Virus record (IMG/VR): IMGVR_UViG_3300022848_000777
Span: 110,751-174,750 of that record
Source: a virus
Length of the DNA stretch: 64,000 bases
Strand: one strand, 5' to 3'
Shown here: positions 6,529 to 34,312 of the stretch, one piece after another
Layout of the letters: every line of letters begins with the position of its first letter
Position numbering within the stretch: the stretch's first letter is position 1
Position numbers and translations under genes: made by a program
Notes under the pieces: model-generated
The model's database searches: none
Told to the model about the DNA's origin: nothing
The model's input: only the letters and a program-made list of their open reading frames with translations

Positions 6529-6616
6529 TGGTTTGGCTATGAATTGAAGCCAAGTAAAAATGTTCAATTCAATTACAAATCTTCATAGGCTTTTATTTAT
6601 AGTCTGTGTTATAAAA
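6523..6616 (+). repeat. attC-like site F
   Basis: Positions 6535-6551 (GGCTATGAATTGAAGCC) pair with 6588-6604 with four mismatches, and the distal end is GTGTTATAA. The first core is degenerate (TAATGG in place of TAACG). The next cassette starts GTTATAAA (6608-6615), the complement of its end at 6841-6848. Confidence 0.62.
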
Positions 6617-6625
6617 CGTTTTATT

Positions 6626-6847
6626 ATGATTGCAAAAATTAAAAAGGACTTAAAAAATAAAGGGTACAAGACACCTAAAGTAAAGTACAATAGATTGAAT
6701 ACTCATTCAATTTCTTATGAAGTTGCACTGAATGAAGCAGACAAATCAAGTGCTTGGGACGGACATTATTTTGTAGGAGAAGAGGGAACAGGAAATTCCA
6801 AAGAAGCAATGATTGAGGATTGGAACTCTTTTGTAAATGATTTATAA
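6626..6847 (+). CDS. Hypothetical protein, 73 aa
   Basis: The start at 6626 is preferred over an ATG at 6560, which lies in the loop of attC-like site F. A basic N-terminal half is followed by an acidic C-terminal half with a GHYFVGEEGTG segment. No family is recognised; size and packing fit a one-gene cassette. Confidence 0.6.
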   Translation: MIAKIKKDLKNKGYKTPKVKYNRLNTHSISYEVALNEADKSSAWDGHYFVGEEGTGNSKEAMIEDWNSFVNDL

Positions 6848-6870
6848 CGTTTAGGCTAAAAACAGTAAAG

Positions 6871-7191
6871 ATGAAGAACGAAATAAAAAACTTGATATAT
6901 AAACACTTTGAACCTAAAGATGTGGGAATGGGAATTATAAATTGTATACACGAAGATAAAGACGTTGATAAATTAGCAGAAAGCTTAGTTGATTTATTTT
7001 CTATACCCGTTGTTAGTAATTGGGTTGCGATCGAAAGTGATGAAAAACCCAAAAGATTTACAGAAGTTATGGTTAAGTACACAAACGGAATAACGGCAAT
7101 TGCCGTGTTTGATGGTGATGGGCGGTTTTATATCGAAAAAGATGACAGGGATATAACAGATATAGTTTTTGAATGGCATAATCTACCATAA
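6871..7191 (+). CDS. DUF551-like protein, 106 aa
   Basis: Residues 1-48 are a helical region. From residue 51 the pattern WVAIESDEKP...VMVKYTNG...GRFYIEKDD...EWHNLP resembles the small DUF551 domain of many phage and prophage proteins, whose function is unknown. The gene begins just after the cassette motif at 6845-6860 and is followed by another at 7199-7214. Confidence 0.55.
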   Translation: MKNEIKNLIYKHFEPKDVGMGIINCIHEDKDVDKLAESLVDLFSIPVVSNWVAIESDEKPKRFTEVMVKYTNGITAIAVFDGDGRFYIEKDDRDITDIVFEWHNLP

Positions 7192-7250
7192 TTACGGGTA
7201 ATGGTTAAACTATGTTATAGGAATAATTTTACGGATTAAAAACTAAAACA

Positions 7251-7319
7251 ATGGAAAGACTAATGATGATAATAGCAACACTTTGGCAGGAATTAAAAAA
7301 AGATTGGAAACGTTGGTAG
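7251..7319 (+). CDS. Possible 22-aa peptide
   Basis: A short ORF after the conserved ACGGATTAAAAACTAAAA leader found before other cassette genes. The peptide is amphipathic with a hydrophobic N-terminal half and a Lys/Trp-rich end (KKDWKRW), like small membrane-active or leader peptides. Too short for certainty; supported mainly by its leader. Confidence 0.3.
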   Translation: MERLMMIIATLWQELKKDWKRW

Positions 7320-7381
7320 CGTATGGGTTTATCCGTATATTACCTCTATAATGATTGATAACCACCTAACAATAAAAATAT

Positions 7382-7525
7382 ATGGATTTTAGAGTAGAAT
7401 ATAGACATAGAGGAATACTTGAATATGTACATTTATCTAGCTGTGAAAATATAATGGATGCACTGCATAAATTCTATGAAGCACATGGAATAAGCACAGA
7501 GATTAATAAAATAGAACGTTGGTAA
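7382..7525 (+). CDS. Small hypothetical protein, 47 aa
   Basis: A small soluble protein with several His residues. It is preceded by a TATATTAC promoter-like element near 7335 and followed by a clear terminator at 7545-7567. No family is recognised. Confidence 0.5.
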   Translation: MDFRVEYRHRGILEYVHLSSCENIMDALHKFYEAHGISTEINKIERW

Positions 7526-7544
7526 AAATTTATTAACAGTGAAG

Positions 7545-7567
7545 GTTGGTTTATCCAACTTTTTTTT
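7545..7567 (+). terminator. Intrinsic terminator
   Basis: GTTGG and CCAAC form a 5-bp stem around a 5-base loop, followed by eight Ts (7560-7567). The following GTATATTAC (7568-7576) may be a -7 element for the gene at 7602. Confidence 0.6.
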
Positions 7568-7601
7568 GTATATTACAACATAGAAAAAACACAATATCGA
7601 T

Positions 7602-7940
7602 ATGAAAGCAGAAATGTACCAAATACTATTTGATGTAGAAAATAAAAACCTCACATCTGAACAAGCTCAAGTTCAGTTATGTGAGTTATTAAGTTTACTT
7701 AATACCGCCCATCTAAATTCCTATGACACTTATTCAGGCGATGCTTTACATAAAATCCCGTTTGGACTTTATGAGATATTTTGGAAATCAGGGGGGTCAT
7801 CCCTTGCAAGTGTTGGTAATATGCACGATGGTGTGAGGTGGATCGCACCTAGTAACTGGACATCAGCGACTTCACCAACGGGTAGAATGGATAAACACGC
7901 AGATTCAATCGAGCGAATGGTTCTTTTGTATGGTACGTAA
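7602..7940 (+). CDS. Hypothetical protein, 112 aa
   Basis: A soluble protein. Residues 1-35 are helical; the centre is Gly/Ser-rich (SGGSSLASVGNMHDG) with aromatic residues. No known motif. The stop overlaps the ATG of the next, Cys-rich gene, so the two are coupled. Confidence 0.58.
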   Translation: MKAEMYQILFDVENKNLTSEQAQVQLCELLSLLNTAHLNSYDTYSGDALHKIPFGLYEIFWKSGGSSLASVGNMHDGVRWIAPSNWTSATSPTGRMDKHADSIERMVLLYGT

Positions 7941-20186: not shown

Positions 20187-20270
20187 GGAAGGTTGACAGA
20201 ATGGTATTGTAGCGGATTGCTAATCCGTGGTCGTTAGTTCGGCTTGTGAGTTCGAATCTCACATCTTCCA
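20187..20270 (+). tRNA. tRNA-Ser(GCT)
   Basis: Acceptor stem GGAAGGT/ATCTTCC, anticodon loop TTGCTAA, long variable arm and T-arm GTGAG-TTCGAAT-CTCAC. CCA is encoded right after the discriminator A (20271-20273), unlike nearly all the others. Reads AGC/AGU. Confidence 0.9.
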
Positions 20271-20305
20271 CCAAAAATTAATTAACAATTTCTTAACATA
20301 TGAAA

Positions 20306-20337
20306 TTAGGTTTAACCAAACTAAATTCGTATCTTTG
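20306..20337 (+). promoter_or_regulatory. Phage promoter within the tRNA block (copy 7)
   Basis: TTAGG at 20306-20310, a 19-base spacer, TATCTTTG at 20330-20337, then leader GGGTTAGGGAAGAAAC. Same family as 57 and 18617. It would drive the second section of the tRNA block. Confidence 0.75.
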
Positions 20338-20434
20338 TTTTGTTGGGTTAGGGAAGAAACGTTTTCTTTAATCATTAGAGTTTGAAATATTAATATCGTT
20401 ACTGTGGATCGATAGTAACGATTATAAAATAAAT

Positions 20435-20508
20435 GGTACTGCATCATATCGGTGTATGCTGCTTCCCTGTCACGGAAGAGATTGTGGGTTCGAATCCCAT
20501 CAGTACCG
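20435..20508 (+). tRNA. tRNA-Asp(GTC)
   Basis: Acceptor GGTACTG/CAGTACC, anticodon stem-loop CTTCC-CTGTCAC-GGAAG, T-arm loop TTCGAAT, discriminator G as usual for Asp. No encoded CCA. Confidence 0.92.
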
Positions 20509-20553
20509 CTTTAGAGTTTTTATAAGTTTCTCTTTTAAAGAACTTTGTTTTTC

Positions 20554-20625
20554 CGCCCATTCGTCTAACGGCTAGGACTTTAGGTTTTCGACCTGAGAAT
20601 GAGAGTTCGATTCTCTCATGGGTGA
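20554..20625 (+). tRNA. tRNA-Glu(TTC)
   Basis: Acceptor CGCCCAT/ATGGGTG, D-arm typical for Glu (TCGTCTAACGG), anticodon loop TTTTCGA, T-arm GAGAG-TTCGATT-CTCTC. No encoded CCA. Confidence 0.9.
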
Positions 20626-20642
20626 CAAATTGGTATAGTTTA

Positions 20643-20774
20643 GCACATCCCCATAAGGATGTTAAAACGACTTTCAAGGATAAGGTAAGAAAGATGAATT
20701 AACATCTACCGTGCATATTAATAGTTTAGTTCATTGACGTATTGGGAATTATGAAGTGGTTTAAATTCCACTTC
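20643..20774 (+). other. Spacer with three hairpins
   Basis: Between tRNA-Glu and tRNA-Ser: ACATCC/GGATGT (20643-20661), AGATG/CATCT (about 20693-20708) and GAAGTGG/CCACTTC (20752-20774). They may be processing signals or part of a small RNA. No ORF or T-arm-like sequence is present. Confidence 0.4.
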
Positions 20775-20779
20775 AATTT

Positions 20780-20868
20780 GGAAGGGCGTATGGCTGGCGT
20801 ACTTATCAGTCTTGAAAACTGTGATGTCGGGTAAAACTGGCGTGTGGGTTCGATCCCCACTCTTTCCA
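20780..20868 (+). tRNA. tRNA-Ser(TGA)
   Basis: Acceptor GGAAGGG/TCTTTCC, anticodon loop CTTGAAA, a long variable arm, T-arm GTGGG-TTCGATC-CCCAC. The anticodon stem is imperfect at its outer pair. Reads UCN codons. Confidence 0.85.
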
Positions 20869-20988
20869 CAACAGCATAGGAACGTGAATACTCATCATTG
20901 AAACAAGTACTATACTCTAAGTGAAATTAATATTTAGTAAGTGTTGGTGATGCTTCAACGAACGATTGATAAAGTAACTTAAAAAATT

Positions 20989-21050
20989 ATCATTTATGGT
21001 AGTGATTGGGAATAGCCAATTAATGCATGAAAACAGCTACCATAAATGAT
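20989..21050 (+). ncRNA. Small hairpin RNA or terminator-like element
   Basis: ATCATTTATGGTAG (20989-21002) and CTACCATAAATGAT (21037-21050) form a perfect 14-bp stem; inside it ATTGG/CCAAT form a second stem. Four Ts follow. It ends 8 bases before tRNA-Lys. This is either a stable small RNA or an unusually long terminator hairpin. Confidence 0.55.
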
Positions 21051-21057
21051 TTTACAA

Positions 21058-21131
21058 TGGCTCGTAACTCAGCTGGTTAGAGTACTCGACTTTTAATCGA
21101 GGTGTCGTGAGTTCGATCCTCACCGGGCCAA
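21058..21131 (+). tRNA. tRNA-Lys(TTT)
   Basis: Acceptor TGGCTCG/CGGGCCA, anticodon stem-loop CTCGA-CTTTTAA-TCGAG, T-arm GTGAG-TTCGATC-CTCAC. No encoded CCA. The following 194 bases to the next tRNA hold no gene. Confidence 0.92.
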
Positions 21132-21325
21132 CAAATTTCGTTAGTTTAATCTTCGTGTTTAACAACACTGAAAAACGCCCTACGTGTGGGTACTGATAGT
21201 ATGAAATCTATCACGAGATTACTTTATTAAAAAATAACCCAAATGATGTATTAGTTCCCATGCACAATGGATCTGATGTGATCATAACGGTATCATATTT
21301 CTAGAGTGTGGTATTTAGGGTTTAT

Positions 21326-21410
21326 ACCTTTGTGGCGAAATGGTTAATACGCGCTAGCCTTAGAAGCTAGTATCAGAAATGGTGTATGGGTTCGACTCCC
21401 ATCAGGGGTA
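21326..21410 (+). tRNA. tRNA-Leu(TAG)
   Basis: Acceptor ACCTTTG/CAGGGGT, anticodon stem-loop CTAGC-CTTAGAA-GCTAG, long variable arm (class II), T-arm ATGGG-TTCGACT-CCCAT. Reads CUN. Confidence 0.9.
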
Positions 21411-21415
21411 CACAT

Positions 21416-21498
21416 GCTGGAATGGCGGAATGGTAGACGCGCAGGTTTCAAAAACCTGTATCCGAAAGGGTGTGTGGGTTCAACTCCCACTTTCAGTA
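21416..21498 (+). tRNA. tRNA-Leu(CAA)
   Basis: Acceptor GCTGGAA/TTTCAGT, anticodon stem-loop CAGGT-TTCAAAA-ACCTG, long variable arm, T-arm GTGGG-TTCAACT-CCCAC. Reads UUG. It follows tRNA-Leu(TAG) by 5 bases. Confidence 0.9.
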
Positions 21499-21523
21499 CA
21501 AACAACTTCTAACGTGGAAGTTG

Positions 21524-21675
21524 GGTAACGTGGTGAAACTGGAAAACACGCTGTTTGTCTGCATCTGCCTTTGGAATTGGCAATAGTTAAAAGAGGGAAA
21601 AGTCATAATCCCGAAACTAGAAACAACTAGGCGAGGCGGGTGACTTAAGTATGGGTTCGAATCCCATCGTTACTA
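21524..21675 (+). tRNA. Atypical 152-nt tRNA-Leu-like RNA, anticodon unassigned
   Basis: The ends are a good tRNA: acceptor GGTAACG/CGTTACT, a class II style D-arm (TGGTGAAACTGGAAAACACGC) and T-arm ATGGG-TTCGAAT-CCCAT. The centre is about 65 bases too long. A possible anticodon stem TGTTT / AAACA brackets an insertion that contains TGCC/GGCA and GGGA/TCCC hairpins. It is too small for a usual group I intron. It may be an intron-bearing or insertion-bearing tRNA, or a tRNA-like module of another RNA. Confidence 0.5.
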
Positions 21676-21677
21676 CT

Positions 21678-21773
21678 AAGAGAGAAGGAAGCGGCGCATC
21701 ACTAATCGATGAAAATACGCTGTTGAGGGGGCTGATTAGATGCCATGCGGATGTGACGTGAAATTCTCTTTTT
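21678..21773 (+). ncRNA. Small structured RNA with terminator-like end
   Basis: AAGAGAGAA at 21678-21686 pairs with TTCTCTTTTT at 21764-21773, which also supplies a T-tract. Inside, CTAATC/GATTAG and GCAT/ATGC stack as a second helix. It lies 2 bases after the atypical tRNA-like RNA. No ORF. Confidence 0.5.
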
Positions 21774-21777
21774 AAAT

Positions 21778-21863
21778 GCTCCTGTGGCGAAATGGTTATA
21801 CGCGCTGGGTTTAAATTCCAGTATCTGAAACATGGTGTGTGGGTTCGAATCTCTCTAGAGGTA
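21778..21863 (+). tRNA. Degenerate tRNA-Leu(TAA)
   Basis: Anticodon stem-loop CTGGG-TTTAAAT-TCCAG and a long variable arm identify Leu(TAA). The acceptor (GCTCCTG/TAGAGGT) has a mismatch and several wobbles, and the T-stem (GTGGG/CTCTC) a mismatch. An intact Leu(TAA) is at 25570, so this copy may be decaying. Confidence 0.6.
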
Positions 21864-21877
21864 CTATTAAAATATAT

Positions 21878-21997
21878 GGGGGTGTGTAAGTAGCACTTAC
21901 AGGTAGGTAGCATGAGAAGCTTGAAGAATCGGATAGAATTACGTAATATATCTGGGAGATAGTTGATAGCTAGAATAAAACCTACTGGCCCACCCTC
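21878..21997 (+). ncRNA. Structured spacer RNA
   Basis: GGGGGTG (21878-21884) and CACCCTC (21991-21997) close a region that contains GTAAGT/ACTTAC (21886-21900) and GTAGGT/ACCTAC (21903-21908 with 21980-21985). A three-helix RNA of about 120 bases; no known family recognised. Confidence 0.42.
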
Positions 21998-22005
21998 ACC
22001 AATTA

Positions 22006-22029
22006 AATGTTCCTTAATTAAGGAACATT
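22006..22029. other. Perfect 24-bp palindrome
   Basis: AATGTTCCTTAA and TTAAGGAACATT are exact complements with no spacer, then ATTATTAAAA. It could act as a terminator-like hairpin or as a protein-binding site. From 22030 to 22316 I see only short helices (AACTAA/TTAGTT) and no gene. Confidence 0.45.
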
Positions 22030-22316
22030 ATTAAAATACGGGCCAACTAAGATTGTAAATTTAGTTAACTACTAGGCTAGTGTGTCACACATGATGAGAA
22101 ATAGGGTAGTTCCTTATAGTGAAAAGTGGTTGGATGAATTGCCACCAGATTGATCATCTGTCTAAGAATTAAGAGATAAATTATAGGCTTCTCACTGATC
22201 TATTCCTAACTTTTTACAAATAGGCTGAGTCGGCTCCTTTTTGGATAGACACGATAGTAATTTGTATTGAGGACAACAATGAACATCTCAGCTGGATAAT
22301 ACATGGTGTTCAACTT

Positions 22317-22390
22317 ACTTCTATAGCTCAGTTGGTTAGAGCAATTCTTTTACATGGAATAGGCCATTGGTTCGAATCCAGTTAGGAGTA
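22317..22390 (+). tRNA. tRNA-Val(TAC)
   Basis: Acceptor ACTTCTA/TAGGAGT, anticodon stem-loop ATTCT-TTTACAT-GGAAT, T-arm ATTGG-TTCGAAT-CCAGT. No encoded CCA. Confidence 0.9.
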
Positions 22391-22406
22391 CAATTATTAA
22401 AAATAT

Positions 22407-22489
22407 GGGCATCGAAAGTTGATTGGATTCAGCAGCCAGACTGTAAATCTGGTCCTTTACGGGGAGTGGTTCGAATCCACCGAGGCCCA
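22407..22489 (+). tRNA. tRNA-Tyr(GTA)
   Basis: Acceptor GGGCATC/GAGGCCC with one mismatch, anticodon stem-loop CCAGA-CTGTAAA-TCTGG, long variable arm as in bacterial Tyr, T-loop TTCGAAT, discriminator A. Confidence 0.88.
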
Positions 22490-22499
22490 CAATAAAACA

Positions 22500-22640
22500 A
22501 AATCCCACTTGAAGATAAACAACACTTACGTTTGAGACCTTAACATTAAGTTGGTAGGAGAGGGGTATAAACTGTATCAGCAGTTGTGTTTATTGTAGAG
22601 GTAGGCGTAAGATGTTTTGTGGTATAAGTACCCGCCAATC
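22500..22640 (+). ncRNA. Structured spacer RNA
   Basis: CTTACG (22525-22530) pairs with CGTAAG (22606-22611), extended by AAACA/TGTTT; inside, ATAAAC/GTTTAT (22567-22572 with 22588-22593). Roughly 100-120 bases, between tRNA-Tyr and tRNA-Pro, no ORF. Confidence 0.4.
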
Positions 22641-22692
22641 CCTTACAAGTATTCCACTGAAATTTGGATGGGGGTTTGTTTTATTTTGATAT

Positions 22693-22763
22693 CGGGTTGA
22701 CGAATGGGGTATCGGCTATGATTTGGAGTCATGGCGTAGTGAGTTCGACTCTCACCAACCCGA
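22693..22763 (+). tRNA. tRNA-Pro(TGG)
   Basis: Acceptor CGGGTTG/CAACCCG, anticodon stem-loop TATGA-TTTGGAG-TCATG, T-arm GTGAG-TTCGACT-CTCAC, discriminator A as usual for Pro. Confidence 0.9.
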
Positions 22764-22777
22764 CGATATTAGTAAAC

Positions 22778-22851
22778 GCATCTGTAACTCAATTGGATAG
22801 AGTGTCTGCCTTCGAAGCAGAGAGTTGGGAGTTCGAGTCTCTCCAGGTGTG
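22778..22851 (+). tRNA. tRNA-Arg(TCG)
   Basis: Acceptor GCATCTG/CAGGTGT, anticodon stem-loop TCTGC-CTTCGAA-GCAGA, T-arm GGGAG-TTCGAG T-CTCTC, discriminator G. Reads CGN. Confidence 0.9.
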
Positions 22852-22913
22852 CAATTGTAATATAATATTACTTCATAAAAACTTGAAATAGATGTGGTAA
22901 AACACTACGTATC

Positions 22914-22987
22914 GGGTAGAATGGATAGGCAAAATAGGTTGGGGTTATACACAAGTCATGTAAATAGGAAGCTACCCATCACTATCC
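22914..22987 (+). ncRNA. Predicted H-type pseudoknot in tRNA spacer
   Basis: GGGTAG (22914-22919) and GGATAG (22923-22928) are followed in the same order by CTACCC (22972-22977) and CTATCC (22982-22987). The two helices must cross, so the element would be a pseudoknot. It lies in the 214-base gap between tRNA-Arg(TCG) and tRNA-Gln; no ORF. Confidence 0.45.
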
Positions 22988-23065
22988 AATAAGATTGATG
23001 AAAATATTAACGATTATCCTTTAGAGTGGTGACTAACATCAATTATAATTTATCTATTTCAATAT

Positions 23066-23137
23066 TGCCCCCTCATCTAATTGGCAGGATGCCTGGTTTT
23101 GAGCCAGAGAATTGAGGTTCGAATCCTTGGGGGGCAA
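23066..23137 (+). tRNA. tRNA-Gln(TTG)
   Basis: Acceptor TGCCCCC/GGGGGCA, anticodon loop TTTTGAG with CTGG/CCAG stem, T-loop TTCGAAT with a weak outer T-stem. No encoded CCA. Confidence 0.9.
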
Positions 23138-23151
23138 CTATATTTAAAATC

Positions 23152-23225
23152 GGTTCCATAGTTTAGAAGGCATAAAATAAATCTCTTGTAAAGATTAGAA
23201 ATCAGTTCGATCCTGATTGGAACCT
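23152..23225 (+). tRNA. tRNA-Thr(TGT)
   Basis: Perfect acceptor GGTTCCA/TGGAACC, anticodon stem-loop AATCT-CTTGTAA-AGATT, T-arm ATCAG-TTCGATC-CTGAT. Confidence 0.9.
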
Positions 23226-23229
23226 CTAA

Positions 23230-23301
23230 GGTGTTGTAACTCAGCGGTAGAGTGCTAGATTGAAGATCTAGTGGTCGGTGGTTCGATCCCACCCAGCACC
23301 A
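23230..23301 (+). tRNA. tRNA-Phe(GAA)
   Basis: Acceptor GGTGTTG/CAGCACC, anticodon stem-loop CTAGA-TTGAAGA-TCTAG, T-arm GGTGG-TTCGATC-CCACC, discriminator A. Confidence 0.92.
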
Positions 23302-23314
23302 CAATATAAAATAC

Positions 23315-23386
23315 ACAAGTGTCGTCTAATGGCTAAGATTACGGATTCCAAACCCGTAGATGGGGGTTCGATACCTTTCACTTGTG
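23315..23386 (+). tRNA. tRNA-Trp(CCA)
   Basis: Acceptor ACAAGTG/CACTTGT, anticodon loop TTCCAAA with ACGG/CCGT stem, discriminator G as usual for Trp. The T-stem relies on G-U pairs (GGGGG/CCTTT). Confidence 0.85.
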
Positions 23387-23416
23387 CAATTATTAACAAT
23401 TTGGTAACATAGAAAA

Positions 23417-23448
23417 TTAGGATATGATATCAAATAACCGTATCTTTA
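23417..23448 (+). promoter_or_regulatory. Phage promoter within the tRNA block (copy 8)
   Basis: TTAGG at 23417-23421, a 19-base spacer and TATCTTTA at 23441-23448, with the upstream TTAACAATTTGGTAACAT box identical to copies 1 and 2. It drives tRNA-Asn and the following genes. Confidence 0.75.
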
Positions 23449-23478
23449 TTTCATTCTGTTGATTCAGAACTATAACAT

Positions 23479-23552
23479 TCCCCCGTAGCTCAGTTGGTTA
23501 GAGCGGCACCCTGTTAAGGTGAGGGTCATAGGTTCGAATCCTATTGGGGGAG
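23479..23552 (+). tRNA. tRNA-Asn(GTT)
   Basis: Acceptor TCCCCCG/TGGGGGA, anticodon loop CTGTTAA, T-arm ATAGG-TTCGAAT-CCTAT, discriminator G. The outer anticodon-stem pair is mismatched. Confidence 0.9.
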
Positions 23553-23599
23553 CAACATAAATTAAATAACATATAAAATCTTAGAAGTTTGATAAGTAT

Positions 23600-23673
23600 G
23601 GGTATATAGCTCAATTGGTTAGAGCATCACCCTGATACGGTGAAGGTTATGAGTTCGAGTCTCATTATACCCA
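23600..23673 (+). tRNA. tRNA-Ile(GAT)
   Basis: Acceptor GGGTATA/TATACCC, anticodon stem-loop TCACC-CTGATAC-GGTGA, T-arm ATGAG-TTCGAGT-CTCAT, discriminator A. Confidence 0.92.
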
Positions 23674-23696
23674 CTTAATTTTAATACGGAGATGTA

Positions 23697-23789
23697 ATGA
23701 AGAAATTAATAAAAGAGAACTTAGATACTATAGGTATACTTGTATTTTTAACAATTTATACGTTAATTGTAATAAGTTATATGTACTAA
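23697..23789 (+). CDS. Membrane micro-protein inside the tRNA block, 30 aa
   Basis: A basic and acidic N-terminus (KKLIKENLD) followed by one hydrophobic segment of about 19 residues (IGILVFLTIYTLIVISYMY). It is flanked by tRNA-Ile and tRNA-His. The coherent membrane-peptide composition supports coding, but the size keeps confidence modest. Confidence 0.42.
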   Translation: MKKLIKENLDTIGILVFLTIYTLIVISYMY

Positions 23790-23797
23790 GTAATTAT

Positions 23798-23872
23798 GGT
23801 GATTATAGCTCAGTTGGTTAGAGTGCTTGACTGTGAATCAAGAGGTCGTCAGTTCGAGTCTGACTTTTCACC
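23798..23872 (+). tRNA. tRNA-His(GTG)
   Basis: Anticodon stem-loop CTTGA-CTGTGAA-TCAAG. The extra G at -1 (23798) faces C73 (23872), the hallmark of tRNA-His. T-arm GTCAG-TTCGAGT-CTGAC. Two T-T mismatches lie in the acceptor stem. Confidence 0.88.
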
Positions 23873-23878
23873 CAAAAT

Positions 23879-23950
23879 GCCGTAACTTTTGGAAGGGTAA
23901 GGTGTAAGCGCTTATGCTAGTTGCTTGGGGTTCGAATCCCCGTTACGGCT
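23879..23950 (+). tRNA. Atypical tRNA-like gene, anticodon unassigned
   Basis: Acceptor GCCGTAA/TTACGGC is perfect and the T-arm TGGGG-TTCGAAT-CCCCG is good, total length 72, but I cannot form a normal five-pair anticodon stem; the middle has a GTAAGCGCTTAT palindrome instead. It may be a decayed tRNA or a tRNA mimic. Confidence 0.45.
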
Positions 23951-24023
23951 CAAATATTTAAATCAAAGCGGAAGATTGTACATTAAATTGTCCGAAGTAC
24001 TTAACAGATTGATTTAAAATTAT

Positions 24024-24097
24024 GGTATAGTACCCAAGTGGTCTAAAGGGGCGGGTTGCAACCCCGTTATTCATTGGTTCGAATCCAATCTATACCT
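24024..24097 (+). tRNA. tRNA-Cys(GCA)
   Basis: Acceptor GGTATAG/CTATACC, anticodon loop TTGCAAC with CGGG/CCCG stem, T-arm ATTGG-TTCGAAT-CCAAT, discriminator T, which is the Cys identity base. Confidence 0.9.
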
Positions 24098-24125
24098 CTA
24101 ATATAAACAAGTAATATATGTAATA

Positions 24126-24578
24126 ATGAAAGTTTTCAAAAAAGTAAACGGTGAAAAAGTAGATGTAATTAAACACACTTTGGATGTAATCAAAAAAAAC
24201 CCTGATGTAGAAATACATATCGGTACAGATTCACAAAGCAGTGGACATCTAACCACATACGTTACTGTGATTGCTTACAGATATTCCACACGTGGAGTTC
24301 ATTACATATTTTGGAAAGAAAAAGTACCTAGAATTAAAGATAAGTTTACTAAATTATACAAAGAAACTGTATTGACTATTGAAGTAGCTGAATGGTTTAC
24401 TTCTCAAATCAAAAGTGTAAAGGTTGAATTGGATTTCGATTACAATGGTGATAAAAAGCACTTCTCTCAAAGATTAGTTCCAGCAACGAAAGGTTGGGCA
24501 GAAGGTTTGGGATATAAGGTGAATATTAAACCAGTAAAGCAAATCGCTACTCATGCAGCGGATTACCACTGTAGATAA
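24126..24578 (+). CDS. RNase H-like YkuK (DUF458) family protein
   Basis: A 150-aa protein with IGTDSQ (residues 32-37) and a C-terminal AADYHCR end, features of the YkuK/DUF458 RNase H-fold family, which are predicted nucleases of unknown substrate. Its place inside a tRNA/RNA block suggests an RNA-related role; this is inference. After the stop there is a 38-codon frame without a start (to 24700) that may be a remnant. Confidence 0.72.
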   Translation: MKVFKKVNGEKVDVIKHTLDVIKKNPDVEIHIGTDSQSSGHLTTYVTVIAYRYSTRGVHYIFWKEKVPRIKDKFTKLYKETVLTIEVAEWFTSQIKSVKVELDFDYNGDKKHFSQRLVPATKGWAEGLGYKVNIKPVKQIATHAADYHCR

Positions 24579-24701
24579 CTTCACAATTTAATATTGTAGA
24601 AATTCCAGCTGGGAAGTGGAAGTTAACACATAAATATGGTATATCAGAAAAAGGATATCACGAGAATTTACCATACGCTACGATGGAATTATTGAAATAA
24701 A

Positions 24702-24733
24702 TTAGGATTATCGAAATATTATCCGTATATTGT
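24702..24733 (+). promoter_or_regulatory. Phage promoter for small RNA (copy 9)
   Basis: TTAGG at 24702-24706, a 19-base spacer, TATATTGT at 24726-24733. It sits just before a hairpin-closed RNA that ends in a T-tract. Confidence 0.7.
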
Positions 24734-24739
24734 AAGAGC

Positions 24740-24880
24740 AGATTAAGAGTGAGAGCAAAAGAAACACATCATGCGAAAACCCTTCGTTTGAAAATGAGCT
24801 GTTGAGTTTGGGAATCGGGAGATAAAACGATGAATATACAGCATTGAGATAGGGCCCAAAAGCCTCTGATGTGTTTTTTT
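24740..24880 (+). ncRNA. Small RNA with intrinsic terminator
   Basis: AACACATCA (24763-24771) pairs with TGATGTGTT (24867-24875) and seven Ts end the element at 24880. It has its own promoter at 24702-24733, so it is probably expressed as an RNA of about 140 bases. No ORF and no known family. Confidence 0.55.
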
Positions 24881-24898
24881 ATATTAATGATTACATAT

Positions 24899-24972
24899 GC
24901 GCCCATAGTTCAACTGGATAGAGCATTGTTTTTCTAAAGCAATAGTTGTGAGTTCGAGTCTCGCTGGGCGTA
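24899..24972 (+). tRNA. tRNA-Arg(TCT)
   Basis: Acceptor GCGCCCA/TGGGCGT, anticodon stem-loop TTGTT-TTTCTAA-AGCAA, T-arm GTGAG-TTCGAGT-CTCGC. Reads AGA/AGG. Confidence 0.9.
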
Positions 24973-24989
24973 CTAAAATACAATAAAAT

Positions 24990-25063
24990 TGCGGGGTGGA
25001 CTGGAGAGGCTCCAGCTCGGTCTCATAAGCCGAATGACGTAGGTTCGAATCCTATCCCCGCAA
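24990..25063 (+). tRNA. tRNA-Met(CAT), initiator-like
   Basis: Acceptor TGCGGGG/CCCCGCA, anticodon stem-loop TCGGT-CTCATAA-GCCGA, T-arm GTAGG-TTCGAAT-CCTAT. The GCGGGGTGGA start resembles bacterial initiator tRNA, but the 1-72 pair is T-A here, so initiator status is not certain. Confidence 0.85.
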
Positions 25064-25074
25064 CTAAACTTATA

Positions 25075-25176
25075 ATGACTATAAGTGAAGCTAAAAGAAG
25101 TTGGAATTTGATAAGGGTTTATCACCAACACCAGTTATTTTTAGAAACCCCGAAAGACCCGAAGTGGTCGTTGTAA
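25075..25176 (+). CDS. Possible small protein, 33 aa
   Basis: A short ORF after tRNA-Met with a plausible charged and aromatic composition (EAKRSWNLIRVYHQHQLFL). No membrane segment or motif. It may be real or chance. Confidence 0.28.
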   Translation: MTISEAKRSWNLIRVYHQHQLFLETPKDPKWSL

Positions 25177-25412
25177 GTTTTTTATAAAAATTAATTCAAC
25201 AATTATGATATTTAATTAAAGGTTAAACCTATGACCTTGTGGAGTATTAAGCACGTTCGAGTAATGTAAGAGCTTAATAACACTAAATAAAGATAGAATA
25301 TAAATTGTTAGTATTAGGCTTCCTACCATAGTATAAGATTCCTAATAGACATATTATATCTATTATACTACACTCAATAGGTTGAAAAATGAGTGTATAC
25401 TTTTATAAAACT

Positions 25413-25557
25413 ATGGAAGAATGGAGAATAATTAGAGATTACGTGGATTATAGTGTTTCTAATAAATCAACGATTACTATACTATGATACCGATGGTAGT
25501 TTAGATGAAATAATGCATGAGAATGGTAAATTTATAAGATTTGCACCATTCCGTTAA
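25413..25557 (+). pseudogene. Homing-endonuclease (NUMOD4) remnant
   Basis: MEEWRIIRDYVDYSVSNKS matches the N-terminus of NUMOD4 modules that accompany HNH homing endonucleases, but the frame stops after 24 codons. A second frame (YYDTDGSLDEIM...FAPFR) continues to 25557. The nuclease domain is gone. It suggests a homing endonuclease once invaded the tRNA block. The rest of 25177-25569 holds no gene. Confidence 0.5.
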
Positions 25558-25569
25558 GTATGATTAAAT

Positions 25570-25655
25570 GCCTCGATGGTGAAATTGGTAGACACGCTGG
25601 ACTTAAAATTCAGTCCTCAGTGATGGGGGTACGGGTTCGAATCCCGTTCGGGGCA
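25570..25655 (+). tRNA. tRNA-Leu(TAA)
   Basis: Acceptor GCCTCGA/TCGGGGC, anticodon stem-loop CTGGA-CTTAAAA-TTCAG, long variable arm, T-arm ACGGG-TTCGAAT-CCCGT. Intact, unlike the copy at 21778. The following 235 bases hold nothing I can identify. Confidence 0.92.
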
Positions 25656-25890
25656 CTACAAAAATAATGATAAGGTTTTTAACGGTGTTAAGAATCAACT
25701 ATAATTAACAACATAGATAACCTATATAATATATAATCTTATATAGTTAATAATATGATGGGTATACATATGAAAGGAATAATCCACATATATGCAATCT
25801 GAATAAGTAGTTATAGAAGATTCACCTGATTCAGATTCATTTTACCGATTCGCTGGTATTATGATATAACGCGAAATGAAACCGTTTAAT

Positions 25891-25964
25891 GGGGTCTTAG
25901 CTCAGTTGGCCAGAGCACTGGATTTGCAATTCAGATGTCAGGGGTTCGAATCCCCTAGGCTCCA
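25891..25964 (+). tRNA. tRNA-Ala(TGC)
   Basis: Acceptor GGGGTCT/AGGCTCC with the G3-U70 wobble that identifies tRNA-Ala, anticodon stem-loop CTGGA-TTTGCAA-TTCAG, T-arm AGGGG-TTCGAAT-CCCCT. Confidence 0.93.
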
Positions 25965-25983
25965 CTTTTTTAAATTAATAGAT

Positions 25984-26472
25984 ATGAAGATAATATTTTT
26001 AGATATTGATGGTGTTATGGTTCCCGATTACCAAAAGGTAAATGATCAAGCATTTCCTAAAGATAATGATTGGGATGCAAAACCATTTTCTCAAAAAGGA
26101 ATGATAACGTTAAATAATGCAATTTTATCAACTGATGCTAGAGTAGTTATTAGTTCAGATTGGAGAAAGCATTATTCGTTACAGGTTATGAGAGATATTT
26201 TTGTAGCAGCTGGAATTCTTTATGGTGAAGATACTATTATTGGATATACTAAAATAATAGGATATGGTGATTATAAATCTAATAGAGCACAAGAAATTCT
26301 AGAATGGGTTAGTCTACATAGACCAGATCAATGGGTTGCTATTGATGATTTAGATTTATCACCATACTTATCAGAGGATAACTTTGTCCACTGTAAATAC
26401 CCAATTGAGGGTATTAAACAACTCGGCAAACGAGCAGAGATTGAAATAAAATTAGGAAGAATTAAACAATAA
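25984..26472 (+). CDS. HAD-superfamily hydrolase (RNA-repair-type)
   Basis: A 162-aa HAD protein: motif I FLDIDGV (Asp7, Asp9), motif II SSDWR (57-61), motif IV AIDDLDL (Asp121, Asp122). The SDWR and the VAIDD pattern resemble the HAD domain found in Swiss-Army-Knife RNA-repair proteins, which removes phosphates from RNA ends. It lies between tRNA-Ala and tmRNA, which fits an RNA-repair job, but that is inference. The start is ATG 25984; a longer frame that includes tRNA-Ala is an artefact. Confidence 0.78.
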   Translation: MKIIFLDIDGVMVPDYQKVNDQAFPKDNDWDAKPFSQKGMITLNNAILSTDARVVISSDWRKHYSLQVMRDIFVAAGILYGEDTIIGYTKIIGYGDYKSNRAQEILEWVSLHRPDQWVAIDDLDLSPYLSEDNFVHCKYPIEGIKQLGKRAEIEIKLGRIKQ

Positions 26473-26490
26473 CGATTGTTTATAATAATT

Positions 26491-26885
26491 GGGGCTGACT
26501 TGGAATTGATTAGCAGATCTAGTTTATGTGAGTGCAATCAGAGAAATGTCATCTATCTCTATAATCTATGGTGATAATAGTTAAACGACGAAAAGTCAGA
26601 TTTTACCTTCGAAGATGCAATGTCTTTCGTAGGTGGTGAGTTCGCTCTAGCAGCGTAGCCGATGGGTGATAACTACCTAGAAACAGAAAGTTATAAGTGG
26701 GTGCTAACTACCTTAAAGTGTAGTAGGATAGTGGAAATCCGTTATGAGAATGTTTTTACAAAGTTGACATTATAAACCACATCAATAATTTTGGTATTTT
26801 GTTTATTTAGAAAAATGAACTATGATTGTGAATGAATTTGTATGACGTGCTGAATAAGACGAGGGTTCGAATCCCTCCAGCTCCA
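26491..26885 (+). ncRNA. ssrA: tmRNA (transfer-messenger RNA)
   Basis: The 5' end GGGGCTG pairs with CAGCTCC at 26878-26884 (Ala-type acceptor with the G-U wobble), with T-arm GAGGG-TTCGAAT-CCCTC. Between them is a tag frame starting around AACGACGAA (26584) and ending VGGEFALAA then TAG (26656-26658). The GACGAA block and ALAA terminus match bacterial tmRNA. Length is 395 bases. The resume codon is not certain; the frame could give a tag of up to 24 residues, longer than the usual 8-15. It would rescue stalled ribosomes and tag products for proteolysis. Confidence 0.93.
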
Positions 26886-26964
26886 GATAACCGAAATTAA
26901 CACACCTGCACGTGGTGGTTATCGCATATTCCGATTTGGAATAACTAAGATGTTAATAATATAA

Positions 26965-27038
26965 GCGTGAGTAGCTCAGTTGGTCAGAGCGTTTGGTTTC
27001 CAACCAAAGGGTCGTGGGTTCGAATCCCACCTTGCGCT
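26965..27038 (+). tRNA. tRNA-Gly(TCC)
   Basis: Acceptor GCGTGAG/CTTGCGC, anticodon stem-loop TTTGG-TTTCCAA-CCAAA, T-arm GTGGG-TTCGAAT-CCCAC, discriminator T. Confidence 0.92.
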
Positions 27039-27058
27039 CAAATAAACATTAAATTAAA

Positions 27059-27090
27059 TTAGGATATATAAAATAGAATTCGTATATTGT
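27059..27090 (+). promoter_or_regulatory. Phage promoter before tRNA(CAT) (copy 10)
   Basis: TTAGG at 27059-27063, a 19-base spacer, TATATTGT at 27083-27090. Confidence 0.7.
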
Positions 27091-27111
27091 ATTTATATAA
27101 TATATATTATC

Positions 27112-27186
27112 GGGCCTTTAGCTCAGTTGGTTAGTAGCAGTACGCTCATAACGTAAAGGTCGGGGGTTCGAGTCCCTCAAGGCCCA
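27112..27186 (+). tRNA. tRNA(CAT): elongator Met or Ile(AUA)
   Basis: Acceptor GGGCCTT/AAGGCCC, anticodon loop CTCATAA with TACG/CGTA stem, T-arm GGGGG-TTCGAGT-CCCTC. CAT could be Met or, if modified to lysidine, Ile for AUA; the body does not settle this. Confidence 0.88.
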
Positions 27187-27212
27187 CTCAAATTAAATAA
27201 TAAGGATGATAA

Positions 27213-27809: not shown

Positions 27810-28069
27810 GGTGGGAGAATGTAAGTTTACCTAATAAGATACAATATCTTAAACAATTAATGAATAATTCTACAGTAGATGTAAGTAGAGATGTCGATGT
27901 CATAGATGCATTAATCACAGGTTCAACGACACCATTTTATATGGATGATGAACTTCAATTTAAAATGCAAGATTCACATATTACATACATGAAAAATTTA
28001 TGGAATGTAGTTGTAGGTTTACAAAAAAATCAATCAATAATTGATTTAATTAAAAGTGAAGTAAAATAA
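27806..28069 (+). CDS. Hypothetical protein, 87 aa
   Basis: A small acidic helical protein starting in an ATGA overlap with the DUF3293-like gene. No motif recognised; probably translated together with it. Confidence 0.56.
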   Translation: MRWENVSLPNKIQYLKQLMNNSTVDVSRDVDVIDALITGSTTPFYMDDELQFKMQDSHITYMKNLWNVVVGLQKNQSIIDLIKSEVK

Positions 28070-28096
28070 TATTTAACATTAATTTAACATCAAAAG

Positions 28097-28128
28097 TTTT
28101 GTTAAGTTAATTTTAATACTTATATTAG
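28097..28128 (+). promoter_or_regulatory. Promoter before tRNA-Gly-like RNA
   Basis: TTTTG at 28097-28101, a 19-base spacer, TATATTAG at 28121-28128, with upstream TTAACATTAATTTAACAT box. It precedes the tRNA-Gly-like gene by 38 bases. Confidence 0.6.
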
Positions 28129-28165
28129 CACGGTTGAAACGATAATGATTGTGGAAACTATAAAT

Positions 28166-28238
28166 GCGGGTGAGGGGTTAAGGGAATACCCGTTTAACTT
28201 CCAGTTAGAAGAAGGTGGGTCAGTTCCATCCACCCGCT
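28166..28238 (+). tRNA. tRNA-Gly(TCC)-like with divergent T-loop
   Basis: Perfect acceptor GCGGGTG/CACCCGC, D-stem GGG/CCC, anticodon stem-loop TTTAA-CTTCCAG-TTAGA, T-stem GGTGG/CCATC. The T-loop is GTCAGTT in place of TTCGAAT, which would disturb normal elongation-factor and D-loop contacts. It may be a special-purpose or decayed tRNA-Gly. Confidence 0.5.
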
Positions 28239-28271
28239 CAAAAAGATTTAACATTAATTTAACATATTAAA

Positions 28272-28303
28272 TTTGGATATCTTATTTAAGTTTCGTATAT
28301 TGT
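28272..28303 (+). promoter_or_regulatory. Phage promoter of the ornate RNA (copy 11)
   Basis: TTTGG at 28272-28276, a 19-base spacer, TATATTGT at 28296-28303, with upstream TTAACATTAATTTAACAT box. No protein gene follows for over 1.1 kb. Confidence 0.7.
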
Positions 28304-28309
28304 GGGTGT

Positions 28310-29440
28310 TAAATAAGTAAAGAAATCGTTCTTTGAAAGTATTGAAAGTATTAAACTAAATACATGATTAATCCTACTTCGGTAGTAGGCACCGATTTGG
28401 CATCGGGGTTGAAGATAATCTACGTATTACCACTGTCCAATGGGAGTTTAATAATATTGGGTAGTTTGATATCCAATTAAAGTATCATCGATGTGTAACA
28501 GCCAGGCTGACAATAAGTTGATAGTTTAATAAAGAATAGAAATCCGTAAGGATTTTGAAAGGTGATATATCACATCTCATCGCTAATTCGTTAGTTCATT
28601 TAAACAAGCAACATCTTACCTGATACTCAAATCAGGCCATCATTACCAAATGGTGGATATAGCAGTAAGTTGATGTAATCGGGCCCTTGAGAAAGGATAC
28701 GTTCAGAGCCATTCGGTGAGAACTAATAAGTGTAGTAACTTACCCCATTACAAACTAAATCAATGTAGTTAGAATAGGATAAGTTGTAGAGTGTGAGTTT
28801 GATTCCTTGCTAGGGATAAGGCGAACATTCAGTATGAAAGGTAAAAGGATTCGTATAGAATTCGTAGTAATCTTAAAATACCGCACAGTAGGATTTGCAA
28901 TCCGAAACGTATGAGGTGTGTTGTATTTTGTATCTCAAAAGGGTATGAAGCAACTGTTGAAGCACACCTTCGTGAATTTAAACTTTGTAAGTTAGCTCAG
29001 TTGGTAGAGCATTTGCCTCAGAAGCAGATTGTCGGTGGTTCAAATCCATCACTTACTATCATATAGATAGAAAAAAGCAAAGACTTCAACAGTTATGGAA
29101 AACAAATCACCTAATCCTACACTCTTAGGAGAATGTAGGTTCGTAGAAGCTCGCAAGGCAGAAATGAATTGATTGAATTCTGCACTTAATCACTTCGCGG
29201 TGATGAATGGCTCGCAAGGTCAGAGGAAAGATGAAAGTTGAGTAGTTCCATAATGATATGAGTATAGCCACTCATTAAAAAAGGCGGTGATGTTGTCATA
29301 CATTCGTGTTGAATGTGGATACGTTATTAACAATAGAGGTCGCACTTTATTGGCACGGTAACAAAAGTGATAACATAAGAGGTTTAATCTCAACCTACCA
29401 ATTAAATTCTCAATACATACGTTATTAACGTTCTGTTAAT
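28310..29440 (+). ncRNA. Large ornate structured RNA with embedded tRNA (GOLLD-like by architecture)
   Basis: A gene-free 1.1 kb behind its own promoter and full of helices: CCGAT/ATCGG, AAATCC/GGATTT (28540-28555), CCTGAT/ATCAGG, and a multi-branch closed by ACATC/GATGT with CTTAC/GTAAG (28609-28678). Others are AGGTGTG/CACACCT, CCTACA/TGTAGG, ATCAC/GTGAT and ATGAGT/ACTCAT. AACTGTTGAAG (28952-28962) pairs perfectly with CTTCAACAGTT (29084-29094), enclosing the tRNA at 28986-29058. GOLLD RNAs of phages are long, ornate, near tRNAs and may carry a tRNA, so the architecture fits. The covariance model cannot be run here. Confidence 0.6.
28986..29058 (+). tRNA. tRNA(CAG)-like gene inside the ornate RNA
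   Basis: Acceptor TGTAAGT/ACTTACT (outermost pair mismatched), anticodon stem-loop TTTGC-CTCAGAA-GCAGA, T-arm GGTGG-TTCAAAT-CCATC. The anticodon CAG would be Leu, but the variable loop is short (class I), unlike every other Leu tRNA here. It is bracketed by an 11-bp helix of the host RNA. Confidence 0.65.
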
Positions 29441-29488
29441 AATTCACAAATGGCTTGTTTATTCAAGTATTTTTTCATATATTACATC

Positions 29489-29758
29489 ATGTCGAACTTA
29501 AAAGATCATTGGAAACATAAGATAGGAAATAAACCTGTCCATCACTTTACCTCAGAACATTTTCCAGTAGAATTGATTATATTATCTGCTGGAATGATGT
29601 GTGATTCCCGTGGTGAATACGTAGAACATTATCATGTAATTGATTGTTCATCTGATTCTCCACCAAATATCACACCACCATCATTGGGATTATCAACCGA
29701 AAAAGAATTAGAATTCAGATTTAATATAAATTTTAAACAAATAACAAATAACAAATAA
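29489..29758 (+). CDS. Hypothetical protein, 89 aa
   Basis: The start is ATG 29489; an upstream in-frame ATG at 29450 would add a hydrophobic stretch that overlaps the likely promoter (TATATTAC near 29478). A His-rich, soluble protein (PVHHFTSEHFPVEL, EHYHVIDC). No family recognised. Confidence 0.56.
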   Translation: MSNLKDHWKHKIGNKPVHHFTSEHFPVELIILSAGMMCDSRGEYVEHYHVIDCSSDSPPNITPPSLGLSTEKELEFRFNINFKQITNNK

Positions 29759-29759
29759 T

Positions 29760-29957
29760 ATGAATTGGTATTCAGTAAAAGTAAAAGTAATTACCGATAA
29801 CGGTAAGACAACAAAAAAAGTAACAGAGCAATATTTAGTTAATGCGGTATCAGTATCAGATGGAGAAGTTAAGATACATGAGTTGTTCAAAAGTTCAGGG
29901 TTGGAATATGAAGTTTCCTCAGTGACTGCAACTAAAATTCTTGAGGTAATTAATTAA
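29760..29957 (+). CDS. DUF4494-like small protein, 65 aa
   Basis: NWYSVKVKVITDNGKTTKKVTEQYLVNAVSV follows the pattern W-x-V-K-V...G-K-x-x-K-V-T-E-x-Y-L-V-x-A of the DUF4494 family, which is widespread in Bacteroidota and their phages and has no known function. It begins 1 base after the previous stop. Confidence 0.66.
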   Translation: MNWYSVKVKVITDNGKTTKKVTEQYLVNAVSVSDGEVKIHELFKSSGLEYEVSSVTATKILEVIN

Positions 29958-33997: not shown

Positions 33998-34312
33998 ATG
34001 GAATACAGATACGAAAAACCATTAGGTGATAGGGTTGTTGTCGATATAATCAAAAACAAAGAAGAGAAAACAGCAGGTGGATTATTAAAACCAGCGGGCC
34101 TTGATGATACTATGATGGGTATTGTTTTAATAACAGGAGATGGATTATTTACTCAAACTGGTGATAGAATACAAATGACTGTAAAAGCGGGTGATACGGT
34201 ACTGCTACAAGGTACAGGCGTTAAGCATAAAAACGGTGATAAATCATATCAGATATACCGTGAAGGTGATATTTTATCAATAGTAACCCCAATATATAAT
34301 ATAGAAATATGA
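33998..34312 (+). CDS. groES: GroES-type co-chaperonin
   Basis: A 104-aa protein with PLGDRVVVDI at the start, TAGGLLKPA in the mobile-loop region, GIVLITGDG, VKAGDTVLLQG and an EGDILSIV end, the full GroES pattern. T4 gp31 has the same role: it replaces the host GroES on GroEL for folding the large capsid protein. This version is much closer to bacterial GroES than to gp31, so host capture is likely. The next gene overlaps its stop by 4 bases. Confidence 0.9.
   Translation: MEYRYEKPLGDRVVVDIIKNKEEKTAGGLLKPAGLDDTMMGIVLITGDGLFTQTGDRIQMTVKAGDTVLLQGTGVKHKNGDKSYQIYREGDILSIVTPIYNIEI

What the first reader, a model, noticed from the sequence alone, without database searches (positions are those of the whole stretch)
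28310..29440. Giant ornate RNA with a tRNA inside an 11-bp closing helix
About 1.1 kb without ORFs but with at least nine clear helices and its own promoter. AACTGTTGAAG at 28952-28962 pairs perfectly with 29084-29094 and encloses a tRNA. This architecture and the position at the end of a phage tRNA cluster fit the GOLLD class (or a new relative), whose function is not known.
Basis: partly seen in the sequence, partly recalled or inferred. Interest (0 to 1): 0.82.

Follow-up and report, generated by a model that had tools for sequence, protein, structure and literature searches.

The report
GOLLD RNA with embedded tRNA mimic
This is a phage copy of the known giant cage-forming RNA called GOLLD, and the "tRNA" inside it looks, here and in about fifty related phages, like a tRNA-shaped mimic with a spoiled end rather than a working tRNA, which gives a concrete lead on what this puzzling RNA does.

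Summary
Window 28913-29396 (+) matches Rfam GOLLD (RF02032) over the full model: 184.7 bits, gathering score 150. The 11-bp helix 28952-28962/29084-29094 is exact, encloses a tRNA (28986-29058), and is GOLLD's own family helix, present with and without a tRNA. tRNAs in GOLLD linkers were already reported (PMC12286853; a pseudo-tRNA in PMC6582537), so this locus is a new member of a known family.

What appears new is the nature of the embedded tRNA. In 52 independent viral GOLLD clusters with a tRNA-like linker, the D, anticodon and T arms and acceptor pairs 4-7 are kept, but distal pairs 1:72, 2:71 and 3:70 are often lost. Only 5/52 have a full 7-bp acceptor, against 179/225 other tRNAs of the same loci. 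The window's copy is a mild case: U1-U72 mismatch, class I body with a Leu(CAG) anticodon, CTG only 2.4% of Leu codons.

Best reading: a covalently held tRNA mimic inside the GOLLD cage, not a released tRNA. Its target (ribosome or tRNA-cutting defence enzymes) is inferred only. Cultured phages MD18 and DSS3_MAL1 carry the same architecture.

The parts
28274..28302 (+). Putative promoter of the GOLLD transcript (TGGATA ... TTCGTATATTG)
   Evidence: Motif TTCGTATATTG recurs at 27079 and 33964 exactly, 9 sites with up to 1 mismatch against 3.1 expected; aligned sites printed; sigma-70-like match 28274-28301. Not shown experimentally.
28320..28912 (+). Probable GOLLD 5' domain (start inferred from the promoter-like motif)
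   Evidence: Fold z -2.15; nhmmer similarity to GOLLD locus L079 begins at about window 28690 and runs into the 3' domain. Not covered by the Rfam model.
28913..29396 (+). GOLLD conserved 3' domain including the linker (RF02032, model 1-416)
   Evidence: 184.7 bits, gathering 150, E 2.3e-50; alignment
28952..28962 (+). 5' strand of the helix that closes the linker (AACTGTTGAAG)
   Evidence: Exact complement of 29084-29094; family-wide helix
28977..29071 (+). Variable linker of GOLLD, here holding a tRNA-like element
   Evidence: Falls in the A/U-rich unpaired, insert-bearing part of the Rfam model; linker reported to lie inside the cage (PMC12286853)
28986..29058 (+). tRNA-like element, anticodon CAG at 29019-29021, U1-U72 mismatch, class I body, followed by TCA
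29084..29094 (+). 3' strand of the helix that closes the linker (CTTCAACAGTT)
   Evidence: Exact complement of 28952-28962; outer part overlaps another Rfam helix

Best explanation
The region encodes a GOLLD RNA of a large phage. Shown here: full Rfam membership; a family helix that closes a variable linker; a tRNA fold in the linker; across the family, that fold keeps its elbow and anticodon arm but tends to lose the distal acceptor pairs. Known for the family (PMC12286853): GOLLD assembles into a 14-mer RNA cage with the linker inside. Inferred: each chain presents a tRNA mimic in the cage interior that stays covalently attached, because a frayed acceptor end should make a poor substrate for RNase P, 3'-end processing and aminoacylation. 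The mimic would engage something that recognises the tRNA elbow and anticodon arm: the host ribosome (PMC12286853 cites ribosome pull-down by GOLLD), or host tRNA-cutting defence enzymes as a decoy. The choice between these two targets is open.
For: GOLLD. Acceptor pattern: full 7 bp in 5/52 linker elements against 179/225 other tRNAs of the same loci; pairs 1:72, 2:71, 3:70 formed in 38, 52 and 67% against 89, 96 and 96%; pairs 4-7 kept at 88-94%. Separate pair counts: 24/41, 19/41 and 12/41 unpaired against 5/40, 2/40 and 4/40; D, anticodon and T helices 98.5-100% paired with many double-sided changes. Encoded CCA 2/52 against 110/229; A34 anticodons 8/52 against 3/229. L151 against L201: compensatory T-stem changes, anticodon GTT against TTC, distal acceptor changed, proximal kept. 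Window: U1-U72, class I Leu(CAG) beside four class II Leu tRNAs, all 20 amino acids covered by the other tRNAs, CTG 26 of 1096 Leu codons.
Against: The window's own copy has 6 of 7 acceptor pairs and a good tRNA score (64.8 bits), so alone it could be a real tRNA. Elements may be repeated captures of different tRNAs, so part of the apparent covariation may predate capture. The main scan required an intact T loop. Most GOLLDs in the T-arm-blind set lack a tRNA (3 of 31 clusters have one), so the mimic cannot be the general function of GOLLD. No expression or binding data.
Confidence: 0.62

Rival explanations
1. The linker holds an ordinary phage tRNA that is cut out by RNase P and 3' nucleases and used in translation; GOLLD is its carrier, and the two GOLLD domains stay together through other contacts.
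For: Window element scores 64.8 bits, with U33, normal D and T loops and 6 of 7 acceptor pairs. It lies at the end of a large tRNA cluster. A mismatch at 1:72 alone is tolerated in initiator tRNAs (established knowledge).
Against: Family-wide loss of the distal acceptor pairs; odd anticodons; G33 in some; class I body with Leu anticodon and a rarely used codon; no separate pseudo-tRNA product detected in a mycobacterial GOLLD (PMC6582537).
Confidence: 0.15
2. Neutral relic: phage tRNAs are now and then captured into the variable linker and simply decay there.
For: Linkers vary fast in general; tRNA-like linkers sit in tRNA-rich loci, 11.7 against 3.5 tRNAs per locus; bodies follow GOLLD relatedness only weakly; some linkers look more degraded (L095, L073).
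Against: Loss is confined to the distal acceptor pairs, while proximal acceptor, D, anticodon and T helices stay paired; L151/L201 show compensatory T-stem changes. Random decay should not be position-specific, although the fit partly selects intact D, anticodon and T arms.
Confidence: 0.18
3. The tRNA fold is only a compact structural plug that holds the linker ends together in the cage.
For: It sits inside a closing helix of the GOLLD fold; anticodon identity varies while the fold is kept.
Against: Most GOLLDs have other, non-tRNA linkers, so no such plug is needed; U33 and A37/A38 remain common in the anticodon loop.
Confidence: 0.05

Closest known systems
GOLLD RNA (Rfam RF02032; 14-mer cage structure of env-38, PMC12286853)
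   Same: Full model match, phage, end of a tRNA cluster, variable linker between domains, closing helix, tRNA sometimes in the linker
   Different: Nothing categorical; only sequence, the linker content and a divergent 5' domain
Mycobacterium GOLLD with a pseudo-tRNA (PMC6582537)
   Same: tRNA-like element inside GOLLD in a large tRNA cluster; the element judged a pseudo-tRNA
   Different: Different host group; only one case described, without the acceptor pattern across the family
Phage tRNAs that counter tRNA-cutting defence (PMC10264068, PMC11555353)
   Same: Phage-encoded tRNA-shaped RNA, with anticodon-loop variation
   Different: Those are reported as phage tRNAs; the linker element looks hard to process or charge and is tethered in a large RNA
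ROOL RNA
   Same: Another phage RNA cage near tRNA islands with an interior linker (PMC12286853)
   Different: No Rfam match here even at E 10

Membership tests
GOLLD (RF02032) | Covariance model match above the curated gathering score | tested here: met
   184.7 against 150 bits, model 1-416
GOLLD (RF02032) | Conserved 3' domain with helix closing a variable linker | tested here: met
   Alignment; helix test
GOLLD (RF02032) | Less conserved 5' domain, total length over 800 nt | tested here: inconclusive
   About 600 structured non-coding bases upstream, partly similar to L079; no 5' domain model available
GOLLD (RF02032) | Phage or prophage location near tRNA genes | tested here: met
   Virus record; 26 other tRNAs and a tmRNA upstream
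GOLLD (RF02032) | Forms a 14-mer cage; transcribed during phage growth | not testable with these tools
   Needs cryo-EM and RNA from infected cells
ROOL | Rfam ROOL model match | tested here: not met
   No match at E up to 10 in 28000-29800
Functional elongator tRNA-Leu | Complete 7-bp acceptor stem | tested here: not met
   U1-U72 mismatch, 6 of 7 pairs
Functional elongator tRNA-Leu | Long variable arm (class II) as in bacterial tRNA-Leu | tested here: not met
   5-nt variable loop; the four other Leu tRNAs of the phage are 84-87 nt long
Functional elongator tRNA-Leu | Processing and aminoacylation in the cell | not testable with these tools
   Needs RNA from infected cells

The most novel reading that the evidence does not exclude
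A large set of phage GOLLD RNAs carries, in the linker that lies inside the cage, a tRNA mimic selected to keep the tRNA elbow, anticodon arm and 4-5 bp of the acceptor but not the acceptor end, so that it is not released or charged. GOLLD would then be a cage that presents up to 14 tethered tRNA mimics to ribosomes or to tRNA-attacking defence enzymes.
Probability: 0.5. Interest if true: 0.8.

Novelty: new member of a known kind. Interest (0 to 1): 0.55.

Why it matters
GOLLD has no established function, and the linker is the part reported to sit inside the cage. Showing that linker tRNAs are systematically altered at the acceptor end, while the rest of the fold is kept, turns "phage tRNAs are sometimes there" into a testable claim about what the cage presents, and names cultured phages in which to test it.

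Tried and rejected
Direct DNA similarity of the window's GOLLD to phage records finds only tRNA matches. Three viral contigs with the same closing sequence are 100% identical to the window over the region and give no evolutionary information. crAss-like phage hits of L121 were tRNA matches, not GOLLD. The idea that the 11-bp helix is specific to the tRNA was rejected. A first impression of tRNA-specific hypervariability was dropped: tRNA and non-tRNA linkers diverge at similar rates in close pairs. The genome-contig scan with the T-arm pattern gave almost only chance matches; by the profile one of its loci (L433) held a GOLLD-like stretch. Two further anchor scans added one GOLLD by the profile. 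A few linker elements leaked into the first control set (seen); the statistics were repeated without them. Erythrobacter phage XM05 (L508) has a similar linker but did not reach the GOLLD cut-off.

Full report
Observation. The 11-bp complement at 28952-28962 and 29084-29094 is exact and encloses a tRNA at 28986-29058. The stretch 28310-29440 has no ORF of 60 aa or more, and both halves fold better than shuffles (z about -2.2). A TTCGTATATTG motif just upstream recurs before other transcription units of the window, so a dedicated promoter is plausible but not shown.

Identity. Rfam GOLLD (RF02032) matches 28913-29396 over its whole model with 184.7 bits (gathering 150). The window lies in a virus record of 174,750 bases with this single GOLLD. 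ROOL does not match. Membership is settled as far as sequence and structure can settle it; cage formation and expression were not testable. [quoted passage not shown] The window is thus a new member of a known kind.

The closing helix. In Rfam's alignment the two strands fall in an internal loop of the first hairpin and in the stretch after the conserved GCAAA motif. Of 71 GOLLD clusters, 45 can form at least 7 Watson-Crick pairs there with their own partner, against 30 of 847 combinations with dissimilar foreign partners; this holds with a tRNA-like linker (32/49) and without (13/22) (earlier version). The helix is a GOLLD feature that closes the linker, whatever the linker holds.

The tRNA. 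Patterns anchored in GOLLD motifs recovered viral GOLLDs with and without a T arm in the linker. A profile made from them sorted GOLLDs from chance, and the Rfam model confirmed all 16 pattern-derived loci submitted to it over the gathering score. After clustering at 85% identity, 52 clusters have a linker whose cloverleaf, scored without the acceptor stem, exceeds every one of 255 shuffled linkers (one further weak case, L031, was set aside). In the scan blind to the T arm, 3 of 31 clusters have it (the window, L079, L097), so it is a minority feature overall, but widespread.

Acceptor pattern. Compared with other tRNAs of the same loci, chosen without regard to the acceptor, the linker elements lose pair 1:72 (38% formed against 89%), 2:71 (52 against 96%) and 3:70 (67 against 96%), while pairs 4-7 stay at 88-94%. 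A full acceptor is present in 5/52 against 179/225 (first version). The separate pair counter gives the same picture on 41 linker and 40 control sequences, with D, anticodon and T helices 98.5-100% paired and changed on both sides in many sequences. Encoded CCA is 2/52 against 110/229; anticodons starting with A (other than ACG) are 8/52 against 3/229. Some loops have G33 instead of U33 (L079 and L128; MD18, MAL1 and XM05 read from the sequence). Infernal leaves the ends of the acceptor out of its match in L097, L178 and L121.

Evolution. Within one close group, L151 and L201 share flanks and most of the element but differ by compensatory T-stem changes, in the anticodon (GTT against TTC) and in the distal acceptor; L121 has a different tRNA body in almost the same GOLLD. 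tRNA bodies follow GOLLD relatedness only weakly, so the elements change or are replaced fast, as linkers in general do. tRNA-like linkers sit in loci rich in tRNAs, which suggests capture from the neighbouring cluster followed by loss of the acceptor end.

The window's element. It is a mild member of this set: U1-U72 mismatch, weak AU-rich acceptor, TCA instead of CCA, a class I body with a Leu(CAG) anticodon. The phage's other tRNAs cover all 20 amino acids, including four Leu tRNAs of class II size, and CTG is 26 of 1096 Leu codons in the predicted ORFs. Taken alone it could still be processed; the family pattern makes a non-decoding role more likely.

Mechanism. Shown: GOLLD identity, the closing helix, the tRNA fold, the family-wide acceptor pattern. 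Known from others: cage, linker inside, and ribosome pull-down as cited in PMC12286853. Inferred: retention of the element in the RNA, presentation inside the cage, and binding of ribosomes or of tRNA-cutting defence enzymes (phage tRNAs are known to counter such defences: PMC10264068, PMC11555353; abstracts only). I put 0.62 on a tethered tRNA mimic, 0.15 on a released functional tRNA, 0.18 on neutral decay and 0.05 on a mere plug. In the library held, no paper found describes the acceptor pattern; subscription papers, including the original GOLLD description, could not be read.

Limits. D and anticodon arms were part of the fit for both sets; the acceptor was not, and that is where the difference lies. 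Test systems: Phaeobacter phage MD18 and bacteriophage DSS3_MAL1 have GOLLD over the cut-off (169.6 and 160.5 bits) with a linker element annotated as tRNA-Arg that, read from the sequence, has G33 and, in MD18, mismatches at pairs 2:71 and 3:70.

Noticed in passing
window 20187-27187: The tRNA cluster (26 tRNAs besides the linker one) covers all 20 amino acids and includes a tmRNA with tag DEKSDFTFEDAMSFVGGEFALAA.
   Followed up: partly
GOLLD loci: window, L082, L111, L142, L149, L170, L184, L228 and others; L506, L507: Phage tmRNA genes lie near GOLLD in 10 of 101 clusters and in 0 of 198 non-GOLLD viral loci of similar total length; confounded by tRNA-rich neighbourhoods.
   Followed up: partly
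window 28164-28238: Just upstream of GOLLD a stretch starting GCGGGTG and ending CACCCGC looks like a cloverleaf-like or pseudo-tRNA that neither ARAGORN nor Rfam calls.
   Followed up: no
window 16062, 24722, 27079, 28292, 33964, 53478: Recurrent TTTGGATAT...TTCGTATATTG-like motif, probably the phage's promoter.
   Followed up: partly
L433 about 6611-7911 (- strand): A bacterial genome contig with three profile matches to the GOLLD 3' domain close together, possibly repeated or broken copies.
   Followed up: no
window 33998-34312: Phage-encoded GroES-like co-chaperonin (phrog_3188, E 7e-14).
   Followed up: no
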